Assembly: GCF_023213175.1 (NCBI RefSeq)
Contig: NZ_CP093312.1
Coordinates: 1,302,001 to 1,366,000, forward strand
From: Sulfurovum sp. XGS-02
GTDB lineage: Bacteria > Campylobacterota > Campylobacteria > Campylobacterales > Sulfurovaceae
Direction: 5' to 3'
DNA: 64,000 bases
Shown: one piece after another, positions 1 to 2,897 of the stretch
Position numbering within the stretch: the first letter of the stretch is position 1
How the letters are laid out: each line of letters starts with the position of its first letter
Position numbers and translations under genes: made by a program
Notes under the pieces: generated by a model
Told to the model about the DNA's origin: nothing
What the model saw: the letters and a program-made list of their open reading frames with translations, nothing else
Database searches by the model: none

Positions 1-278
1 TATATTAGTTGTCAAATTAATTATAGTTTGATAACTAAGTAATAAAAAATCACCTAGCTATTGATAATCCAACCGTTGTTAATATCATGTTTAAAATATT
101 GCGAATAATCTTTGCGGATTAACCTGACGGTCTACAGGGGCCTAAATTCAAAATATCTGAGAAATTTTTTTGTAACTCTTCTTTCCATTTGCTCCAAATT
201 ACGGATTTATTTTCAAAAAAATGCGAATCTAAAAGTGCTATATCTATCACATTTTCATTCAAGAATAGCTCATCTTCT

Positions 279-306
279 AGGTCGAAAAAATCGACCTCTT
301 TTTTTT
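279..306 (+). terminator. Strong intrinsic terminator
   Basis: A perfect 7-bp stem (AGGTCGA at 279-285 with TCGACCT at 291-297) with a five-A loop is followed by C and eight T residues. It reads as a rightward terminator and would separate the Fic-like gene from whatever is transcribed from the left. In 1-278 I see no convincing gene start. There is an open minus-strand frame ending at about 119 with no good start codon, possibly a gene remnant. Confidence 0.6.
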
Positions 307-340
307 GCTACCATACGGTATTAACAAAAAAGAGGGAATC

Positions 341-1399
341 ATGAGAAACAACATAATACATAACAGACAATATCATACAACACATGAGGAACTAATCTCT
401 TTGGCTGAAAAACTTTTAATTGACAGTGCTTCACTTCTAGGTTTTCACAATCCTCAAGTAATCCATGAGTTGAAAAAATTTAATACATACGTAAACAGTT
501 ATTATTCAAATGATATTCATTTTGAAGGTGCCCATCCTTCTTTGATGGACAGATATACTAAAGAAAGTTTGTCCACAAATAGTAAAGAGTCACGACTGCA
601 ACTTCGATCATTGAAGTATATAGAACAACAAAAGATATTAGAAAAATATTTTAATGATTGTAGTGTTGTTCGTATTCCTGAAAAACTTCCTTATGAAATT
701 CATAATAAGATTTTTGACAGTTCTAACAATGTAGATACAAATAATACACATTATTTTACATGGCCTAATCATATAACAGTAGTTGAAAAGGTAATAAATT
801 CCTTACAGTTACACTACCTAATCACACAGATACATTACAGATCAGATGAGTATAGAATAGTTGCAAGATTAATTCTTGACGGACTTCTTTCAACTATAAA
901 AGGATATGGGTTATGGAATATTTCAAGAGGTCTTCATATACATTCTACAGAATATGAAAAATATCTTAATATCGAAGATAAAGAGAGTGAAGCAGCCTCA
1001 TGGCATTTAGAAACTTTATCTGTAGAAAACTCAAACCGCTATATTAAATTCATGCTAGAAGTTGCTTTGGAACAGGTCCATTATGTCAAAGAACATATAA
1101 CTACAAACAAGATTTACCAAAATATCCAAAACTATCTTCATCTATCAAGTAAAGGATCTTTTTATAGTGAGTCTTTTTCTAAAGATTCTGAACTGTTATT
1201 TAAAGAACTATTACTTCTTGGAGAGATACGTCGTGGAGATGTTGCTTCGATTATAAACAAAAAATCAAGAACTTCGACATATTTAATCAAAAAGCTTACT
1301 GAAATGGACCTTATCACATCCGATACGCCAAAAAGTCCTATTCGCCTTAAATTTAATATGCATTTTACTTCTCATCTGTTTCCTGAGCTAGTAAGATAG
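341..1399 (+). CDS. Fic-family protein with degenerate Fic motif
   Basis: The 352-residue product aligns by eye with Fic (AMP-transferase) proteins of the N-terminal-inhibitor type. An N-terminal helical part has the YYSN turn around residue 56, the Fic core spans roughly 120-270, and a C-terminal winged helix covers about 285-330. Where active Fic proteins have HPFxDGNGR followed by xARL, this one has HYRSDEYRI then VARL (residues 165-177), with the same spacing. His165 and Asp169 remain, but the phosphate-binding Gly-Asn-Gly-Arg is gone. The inhibitory (S/T)xxxE(G/N) motif is also altered: Ser56 is kept but His-Phe stands where Glu-Gly is expected. The start at 341 is chosen because a GAGGGA ribosome-binding site precedes it; an in-frame ATG at 305 lies inside the terminator region. 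It is the first gene of the island segment seen here. AMPylation seems unlikely; a regulatory or DNA-binding role through the winged helix is an inference. Confidence 0.7.
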   Translation: MRNNIIHNRQYHTTHEELISLAEKLLIDSASLLGFHNPQVIHELKKFNTYVNSYYSNDIHFEGAHPSLMDRYTKESLSTNSKESRLQLRSLKYIEQQKILEKYFNDCSVVRIPEKLPYEIHNKIFDSSNNVDTNNTHYFTWPNHITVVEKVINSLQLHYLITQIHYRSDEYRIVARLILDGLLSTIKGYGLWNISRGLHIHSTEYEKYLNIEDKESEAASWHLETLSVENSNRYIKFMLEVALEQVHYVKEHITTNKIYQNIQNYLHLSSKGSFYSESFSKDSELLFKELLLLGEIRRGDVASIINKKSRTSTYLIKKLTEMDLITSDTPKSPIRLKFNMHFTSHLFPELVR

Positions 1400-1449
1400 G
1401 AAGCAGTAATTGATGGGAACTTTACACTTGAAAGATATTGGGAGGAATT

Positions 1450-1683
1450 ATGATATTTGATGTGATTAATGAAAAACTCGATGAAATATTAAAAATTCAT
1501 CAATCTTTGCCTTCTTGGATACCTTTGAGTAAAAATTTTGCAGAAGAGTGTGGATACACAACTATAGATGGCTTACGCAAATGGTGTTTCAATAATTTAC
1601 CTCCTGAAAAGTTTGAGAAGCGCGGCAAAAACTGGTTTATCCATCTTTCTGTTCTACACCAAATCAAGAGAAAGTCTGTATAA
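1450..1683 (+). CDS. Small excisionase-like DNA-binding protein
   Basis: A 77-residue basic protein with an excisionase/AlpA-like pattern: a leucine-rich N-terminal helix, then a 'WIPLSKNFAEECGYTT' stretch, 'GLRKWC', and a basic wing ending in 'KNWFIHLSVLHQIKR'. This pattern is typical of small winged-helix proteins encoded next to tyrosine integrases, which bend DNA or set the direction of recombination. GGAGG at 1441-1445 sits 4 bases before the ATG at 1450, so I prefer that start to an in-frame one 12 bases upstream. It lies between the Fic-like gene (50 bp away) and the integrase (34 bp away), all in one direction and probably one transcript. The family assignment is by shape only. Confidence 0.6.
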   Translation: MIFDVINEKLDEILKIHQSLPSWIPLSKNFAEECGYTTIDGLRKWCFNNLPPEKFEKRGKNWFIHLSVLHQIKRKSV

Positions 1684-1717
1684 TGTTTATGCCAACAGCT
1701 AACGGAAGGAAACAAAG

Positions 1718-2776
1718 TTGGCAAAAGTCACTATAAATAGCTATGGTTTTATTATATTGGATAGTACTATAGATGGAAAGCGGCATAGGCTTACCACTGG
1801 CAAAAAAGCAGAAAAAAGACTGCTTCAGTGGTATGAAAAGCATATTGAAGATGAATTCTTGAAACTTTACGAGCAAAAGTTCGGTGTAACAAATAGAGAA
1901 TCAACTACATTTAAAGAGTATGGAGAGTATATTTTAGAAATATCTTCAAACAATAGAAACTCATTTTCACAAAAAGAAATTATGCAACAGTTTAGAAAAT
2001 TGTGTGAAATATTCGGAGATTTATATTTGACTGACATTAAAGCAAGTCACATTTTAAAGTGGCAAAATACTTGTGGATTTGCTCCAAAGACAGTACAAAA
2101 CTATAGAGGCACGTTAAACCTTATATTAAAGATGGCTCTTTATGATGAGATTATAACAAAAAACCCTCTTACCGTCGTAAAACCTCCTAAAAAGGTTTAT
2201 AAAGAAACTTTTGTATTTTCGCAAGAAGATATGAAACTCTTAATCAGTAATAGTACTGGACAGTTTAGAAATATGTTAATGTTTAATTTCTTTGCTGGGT
2301 TAAGAGGCAGTGAATTGATTGCACTTAGATGGGATGACATTGATTTTGATGCAAATACAATCAGAATAGATACTCGTATACGTCAAGGTATTGAAGATGT
2401 CACCAAGTCAAAGAGAGTAAGGATAATAGATATGCTCCCACAGGCAAAGGCTGCACTAAAAAAGCAAATGCTGATTACTGGACTCAAAGGTAATTATGTC
2501 TTTCTCTCACAACACGGTAAGGTTTATACCACACCTAATGTACTAAGCGATCGACTGAAAGATCTATGTGTAGAATGTGGTATCAAAGCTGGCACGATGC
2601 ACACTGTAAGGAAATCATGCAATACCCTGCTCAAACAATACGGGTTGCCTCAAGATTGGATACTAGATCAATTAGGACATGTTGAAGATGGTGTAAATCG
2701 TGAATATTATACGGGTAAAATTAAACCTGATATGTCAAAAATTGGCAGAGTTTTGGCAGAGTTAAAGTTTGGTTAG
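1718..2776 (+). CDS. Tyrosine-type site-specific integrase
   Basis: The 352-residue protein has the phage-integrase layout: an N-terminal arm-binding part, a core-binding SAM-like domain (about 65-150), and a C-terminal catalytic domain. The catalytic residues are visible: Arg196 in GLRGSE, a lysine near 230-232, His295-x-x-Arg298, His321 in LGH, and the nucleophile Tyr330 or 331. The box II region reads HTVRKS rather than the common HxLRHT. Translation starts at TTG (1718) behind a good GGAAGGA site 7 bases upstream. The gene ends 30 bp from tRNA-Ser, which identifies the tRNA as the probable attachment site. The frame is intact, so the element may still be able to move. Confidence 0.9.
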   Translation: MAKVTINSYGFIILDSTIDGKRHRLTTGKKAEKRLLQWYEKHIEDEFLKLYEQKFGVTNRESTTFKEYGEYILEISSNNRNSFSQKEIMQQFRKLCEIFGDLYLTDIKASHILKWQNTCGFAPKTVQNYRGTLNLILKMALYDEIITKNPLTVVKPPKKVYKETFVFSQEDMKLLISNSTGQFRNMLMFNFFAGLRGSELIALRWDDIDFDANTIRIDTRIRQGIEDVTKSKRVRIIDMLPQAKAALKKQMLITGLKGNYVFLSQHGKVYTTPNVLSDRLKDLCVECGIKAGTMHTVRKSCNTLLKQYGLPQDWILDQLGHVEDGVNREYYTGKIKPDMSKIGRVLAELKFG

Positions 2777-2806: not shown

Positions 2807-2897
2807 TGGCGGACAGTGAGGGATTCGAACCCTCGGTACCCTTACGAATACGCATCCTTAGCAGGGATGTGGTTTCAGCCAACTCACCCAACTGTCC
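2807..2897 (-). tRNA. tRNA-Ser(GCU)
   Basis: On the minus strand a 91-nt tRNA can be folded: acceptor stem GGACAGT/ACTGTCC with discriminator G and encoded CCA, anticodon arm with loop CTGCTAA giving anticodon GCT, a long variable arm as expected for tRNA-Ser, and a T arm containing GGTTCGAATCC. It decodes AGC/AGU serine codons. Its 3' end faces the integrase gene. Confidence 0.95.

What the first reader, a model, noticed from the sequence alone, without database searches (positions are those of the whole stretch)
341..1399. Fic-fold protein that has lost both the Fic motif and the inhibitory motif, in a tRNA-Ser island
The protein keeps Fic architecture (YYSN helix, core, 'VARL' after the active-site loop, 'GLWNISRGL', C-terminal winged helix), but the HPFxDGNGR loop is HYRSDEYRI with identical length. 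The (S/T)xxxEG inhibitory motif has His-Phe in place of Glu-Gly. Loss of the phosphate-binding loop together with loss of the intramolecular brake suggests the frame has been kept for a purpose other than AMPylation, for example DNA binding or sequestering a target. It is the leading gene of the visible island cargo.
Basis: partly seen in the sequence, partly recalled or inferred. Interest (0 to 1): 0.6.

Follow-up and report, generated by a model that had tools for sequence, protein, structure and literature searches.

The report
Fic-derived protein without catalytic site
A defence island in a Sulfurovum genome carries a descendant of the AMP-transferring Fic enzymes that has lost its catalytic centre but was kept by selection, above all in its DNA-binding end, so it looks like an enzyme turned gene regulator.

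Summary
The 352-aa protein descends from an active Fic-winged-helix family of Campylobacterota (40-48% identity over most matched segments). All 32 full-length homologues from whole-genome searches keep HPFxDGNGR. It is not simply a decayed gene: a neutral window branch is rejected (2dlnL 34.3); zero stops in 352 codons caps neutral drift near 0.13 substitutions per codon; the winged helix is most constrained (omega 0.024); catalytic-pocket invariants were lost selectively. AlphaFold2 gives a Fic fold plus winged helix closest to CccR (7XUX, Z 24.1), an autorepressing Fic-HTH protein. Active homologues carry paired tandem repeats at their promoters whose sequence tracks the recognition helix; a degenerate, inverted version lies upstream of the window gene and its tandem is the only exact match in the genome. 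Best reading: a catalytically dead Fic kept as a DNA-binding regulator. Only one well-formed case is known (a second relative is frameshifted); binding and target are unshown. The gene is the last cargo of a 26-kb Druantia/restriction island, not its leading gene.

The parts
341..1399 (+). Fic-derived protein, 352 aa (P0001), without Fic motif, flap or inhibitory Glu
506..529 (+). Former inhibitory motif, residues 56-63 SNDIHFEG (homologues SN[K/Q/R]IESEG)
713..757 (+). Residues 125-139: site of the net 42-residue deletion that removed the flap
   Evidence: no beta-hairpin in the model, present in the active homologue's model
833..859 (+). Former Fic motif, residues 165-173 HYRSDEYRI
1166..1396 (+). 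C-terminal winged-helix domain, residues 276-352, the most conserved part
   Evidence: 49-61% identity against 24-42% elsewhere; omega 0.024; winged-helix matches
99..119 (-). Tandem operator-like site ATCCGCAA-AGATT-ATTCGCAA, reversed relative to the gene; period 13 instead of the family's 12; only exact match to ATYYGCAAN5ATYYGCAA in the 2.19-Mb genome
199..206 (-). Second unit ATCCGTAA, 87 nt from the unit at 112-119; family operator pairs are mostly 77-90 nt apart
279..306 (+). Intrinsic terminator between the DruE operon and the gene
1441..1683 (+). 80-aa HTH/excisionase-like protein of the integration module
   Evidence: found next to a related integrase in other Sulfurovum elements
1718..2776 (+). 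Tyrosine integrase
2807..2897 (-). tRNA-Ser(GCT), integration target; its 3' end lies in a 30-nt repeat (2792-2821) with an exact copy at genome 1278771, i.e. 23.2 kb left of window base 1

Best explanation
A catalytically dead Fic-winged-helix protein kept as a DNA-binding regulator. Active members of the family appear to be autoregulated AMP-transferases: each carries paired tandem operators at its own promoter that its winged helix probably binds (inferred from sequence covariation and from the characterised relative CccR). In this lineage the catalytic loop, the flap and the inhibitory Glu were lost while much of the scaffold and the winged helix stayed under selection. Most likely it dimerises and binds ATCYGCAA-like repeats, repressing its own region and possibly fic promoters of incoming elements. 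Shown: descent, loss of the site, long-term selection on the frame, operator architecture in homologues, one genome-unique degenerate site upstream. Inferred: DNA binding, repression, its target.
For: Homologues intact and the window gene placed among active Sulfurovum genes, with modest support. Neutral window branch rejected, 2dlnL 34.3. wHTH omega 0.024, p 8e-9 against neutral. 2 of 14 pocket/flap/inhibitory invariants kept against 45 of 70 elsewhere, Fisher p 8e-4; 2 of 9 and p 0.027 without the deleted ones; NSYYSN 6/6, GYGLWNxSRGL 10/10 and the last eight conserved columns of the winged helix 8/8 kept. No stop in 352 codons. Best fold match CccR 7XUX, Z 24.1, 324 residues at 3.8 A; CccR represses its own promoter and its Fic-less C-terminal fragment binds DNA (PMC9755527; 7XUX identified as CccR). 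Operators in homologues: period-12 score 41.4 against 21.6 in shuffles; unit sequence tracks the recognition helix. Window helix RTSTYLIKKL is nearest the RTATTLIKxL group, which uses ATCYGCAA; a reversed ATCCGCAA tandem lies upstream.
Against: No binding data. The upstream site is inverted, degenerate, has a 13-nt instead of 12-nt period, and was noticed before the pattern was fixed. No family-type (12-nt) operator exists elsewhere in the genome, so no regulon is visible. Only one well-formed instance; the other motif-less relative is frameshifted. N-terminal omega (0.37) is not distinguishable from neutral. Long-branch codon estimates are saturated. The AlphaFold2 fold leans on an alignment of active homologues.
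Confidence: 0.5

Rival explanations
1. Decaying gene: the Fic enzyme was inactivated and the remaining frame is drifting, not yet interrupted.
For: Long branch (1.52 against at most 0.60 substitutions per site in the FastTree); N-terminal omega 0.37 not different from neutral; deletion; low GC (30.5%); fragments of decayed fic genes are seen in other genomes of the genus (L011, L012); the relative in G089 is frameshifted.
Against: Whole-branch neutrality rejected; no stop in 352 codons where neutral drift of the fitted length predicts about 34; losses concentrate in the pocket while winged helix and GYGLWNISRGL are kept. At most a short recent phase of decay fits.
Confidence: 0.27
2. Dominant-negative or antidote-like partner: the dead protein pairs with active Fic proteins of competing elements, or holds their target, and so blocks AMPylation.
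For: N-terminal dimer region and scaffold residues partly kept; Fic-HTH proteins dimerise; the island is a defence island.
Against: No other Fic in the genome; the flap that holds the target is deleted; the N-terminus is the least constrained part.
Confidence: 0.12
3. A changed chemistry: His165 and Asp169 still serve a different transfer reaction.
For: The His and Asp of the motif remain.
Against: The GNGR phosphate-binding loop and flap are gone; the motif-less relative in G089 lacks His and Asp too.
Confidence: 0.04

Closest known systems
Active Fic-winged-helix proteins of Sulfurovum and other Campylobacterota (e.g. L123, L172; 'Fic family protein')
   Same: Descent, 40-48% identity over most matched segments, domain order, winged helix, YYSN and GYGLWNISRGL signatures
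   Different: They have HPFxDGNGR, flap, inhibitory Glu and paired operators directly upstream; the window gene has none of the first three and only an inverted, degenerate operator
CccR of Yersinia pseudotuberculosis (7XUX; PMC9755527)
   Same: Same fold, Fic plus C-terminal HTH; works as autorepressor; Fic-less C-terminal part binds DNA
   Different: CccR is an active AMP-transferase effector and binds inverted repeats (AGATAATCAT-N26-ATGATAATCT); the window protein has no active site and the family's sites are direct repeats
CbFic2 of Coxiella burnetii (8CIL; PMC10628234) and SoFic (3EQX)
   Same: Class II Fic with C-terminal winged helix; CbFic2 binds DNA and is regulated by it
   Different: CbFic2 has an intact Fic motif (PMC10628234) and SoFic is an active adenylyltransferase; CbFic2 was tested on random DNA, no operator known

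Membership tests
Fic enzymes (PF02661) | HPFx[D/E]GN[G/K]R catalytic motif | tested here: not met
   HYRSDEYRI; no PF02661 match at E<=1, no Fic match anywhere in the genome, while the active homologues tested score above the cut-off
Fic enzymes (PF02661) | Fic/Fido fold | tested here: met
   AlphaFold2 pLDDT 82.9, pTM 0.84; leading structural matches are Fic structures, with the caveat that the alignment held active homologues
Fic enzymes (PF02661) | Descent from Fic proteins | tested here: met
   E 1.5e-55 to genus homologues with Fic motif
Class II Fic (N-terminal inhibitory helix) | (S/T)xxxE(G/N) with the inhibitory Glu | tested here: not met
   SNDIH: Glu replaced by His
Class II Fic (N-terminal inhibitory helix) | Flap beta-hairpin for target peptide | tested here: not met
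   segment deleted, no hairpin in model
Fic-HTH autorepressors (CccR type) | C-terminal winged helix | tested here: met
   residues 276-352 match winged-helix regulators
Fic-HTH autorepressors (CccR type) | Operator at own promoter | tested here: inconclusive
   Inverted, degenerate tandem 222-242 nt upstream of the ATG
Fic-HTH autorepressors (CccR type) | Specific DNA binding and repression | not testable with these tools
   needs EMSA/reporter

The most novel reading that the evidence does not exclude
A Fic enzyme turned into a dedicated transcriptional repressor, originally divergent from an active fic gene and now an immunity-type repressor against fic-carrying elements, within a family that uses a phased pair of tandem operators whose code coevolves with the recognition helix.
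Probability: 0.15. Interest if true: 0.75.

Novelty: new variant of a known kind. Interest (0 to 1): 0.48.

Why it matters
No dead-Fic transcription regulator turned up in the open-access literature searched here (six searches, not exhaustive). The case separates the two functions of Fic-HTH proteins by natural loss. The paired-operator architecture in active homologues predicts where these poorly understood proteins bind, and makes the long-suggested idea that HTH domains fused to Fic control fic expression (PMC2686095) directly testable.

Tried and rejected
Single-sequence scan of genome contigs and an alignment-based scan of viral contigs gave no relatives. A fic gene as part of the HTH-integrase module: rejected, the other examined copies of the module have other genes upstream (relaxase-like, inovirus-type replication gene, methyltransferase-linked gene and others, named by eye). 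Association with Druantia: cannot be judged, this DruE is the only one in 175 genomes of the family. The upstream DNA has no close relative elsewhere (only short weak matches). Grouping with the motif-less relative in G089: bootstrap 70 and both branches long, so attraction cannot be excluded. A regulon of family-type operators in the genome: none at zero mismatches, three at one mismatch against one in the control.

Full report
Observation. The gene at 341-1399 is an intact ORF of 352 codons. Library searches do not recognise it, but whole-genome searches find homologues in the same genus, family and order; record titles of the scan identify relatives as Sulfurovum, Sulfurimonas, Sulfuricurvum, Arcobacter and others, so the window genome is most likely a Sulfurovum (inference). 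In the first set all 32 full-length homologues keep every invariant residue of HPFxDGNGR and the inhibitory Glu. In the second, overlapping set of 80 loci, all have HPFxDGNGR except L180 (cut by the contig end before the motif) and L185, which reads HPFYDGSGR in a split frame. The window copy alone among intact frames lacks the motif. It also lost a net 42 residues that include the flap.

Is it decay? Four results speak against plain decay. First, on a 17-taxon codon alignment (343 codons) a model with neutral evolution on the window branch is worse by 2dlnL 34.3 (p 5e-9) than one with free omega (0.11). Second, per region, omega on the window branch is 0.37 in the N-terminal part (not distinguishable from neutral), 0.24 in the core, 0.04 in the middle and 0.024 in the winged helix; synonymous change is saturated, so the figures are rough, but the winged helix also stands out in amino acid identity, 49-61% against 24-42% elsewhere. 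Third, 6.6% of neutral substitutions would create a stop; no stop in 352 codons limits a neutral phase to roughly 0.13 substitutions per codon, enough to change about a tenth of the residues, not the more than half that differ. Fourth, conserved positions were not lost at random: 2 of 14 invariants of motif, flap and inhibitory Glu are kept against 45 of 70 elsewhere. The last test was framed after seeing the motif; the flap positions were lost in one deletion, and without them p is 0.027. Together they say the frame was maintained for a long time after, or while, catalysis was lost.

Fold. AlphaFold2 with 46 sequences gives pLDDT 82.9 and pTM 0.84; the active homologue gives 92.8 and 0.91. 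The window model matches Fic structures, best CccR 7XUX (Z 24.1, 324 residues, 3.8 A; Foldseek), and the C-terminal end matches winged-helix regulators. The flap hairpin seen in the active model is absent. The alignment consists of active homologues, so the fold is not an independent result.

Operators. Upstream of active genes lie two tandem direct repeats, each with a 12-nt period, most pairs 77-90 nt apart, the proximal one usually just before an extended -10. Over 41 upstream regions the mean score at period 12 is 41.4 against 21.6 in shuffles and 19.6-27.8 at the other periods from 9 to 16; some individual regions do not exceed their own shuffles. The unit differs by clade (ATCYGCAA, CTCGCCA, TCTCGTAA, ATCGGCA, GAGGTAAA and others) and its distance correlates with that of the recognition helix after correcting for the rest of the protein (partial Mantel r 0.23, 0 of 2000 permutations; phylogeny makes this test too optimistic). 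This fits autoregulation as shown for CccR, although CccR uses inverted repeats. The window gene has no such site in the usual place. Its upstream region has, on the minus strand, ATCCGCAA-N5-ATTCGCAA at 99-119, the only exact match of that pattern in the genome, and ATCCGTAA at 199-206, 87 nt from the unit at 112-119. I noticed the site before fixing the pattern, and it has a 13-nt period, so it is a lead rather than a proof. A terminator at 279-306 separates it from the gene.

Context. The left flank holds a DNA methyltransferase, a restriction enzyme, a MutY-like protein, a helicase and Druantia-like DruF, DruL and DruE; the right side an excisionase-like protein, integrase and tRNA-Ser. 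The tRNA 3' end is repeated exactly (30 nt) 23 kb to the left and again (26 nt) 35 kb to the left, so the element is about 26 kb and possibly stacked on another. The HTH-integrase module occurs in several other elements of the genus without a fic gene upstream. The genome has no other Fic.

Conclusion. It is a Fic descendant that fails the membership test for Fic enzymes and most likely works as a DNA-binding regulator; binding, target and partner remain unshown.

Noticed in passing
L123-L175, 336 nt upstream of the fic genes: Paired tandem direct repeats (period 12, most pairs 77-90 nt apart) at promoters of active Fic-winged-helix genes; unit sequence tracks the recognition helix. Similar CGGCAA repeats are visible upstream of Pseudomonas homologues.
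   Followed up: partly
L024:5441-15984 (genome 1291441-1301984): Druantia-like operon (helicase, DruF-, DruL-, DruE4-like) next to a type II R-M set; DruE is unique among 175 genomes of the family.
   Followed up: partly
window 1441-2776 and L114-L121: Conserved excisionase-like plus integrase module shared by inovirus-like, mobilisable and defence elements of the genus.
   Followed up: partly
genome 1278771 and 1267075 (window -23229 and -34925): Two left copies (30 and 26 nt) of the tRNA-Ser 3' end: possible tandem islands.
   Followed up: no
L060:7178-8217 (G089): Second motif-less Fic relative, frameshifted in a GA run between N- and C-terminal halves, winged helix well kept; possible pseudogene, slippage site or sequencing error.
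   Followed up: partly
window 310-321: Imperfect palindrome TACC-ATAC-GGTA between the terminator and the RBS of the fic-like gene.
   Followed up: no
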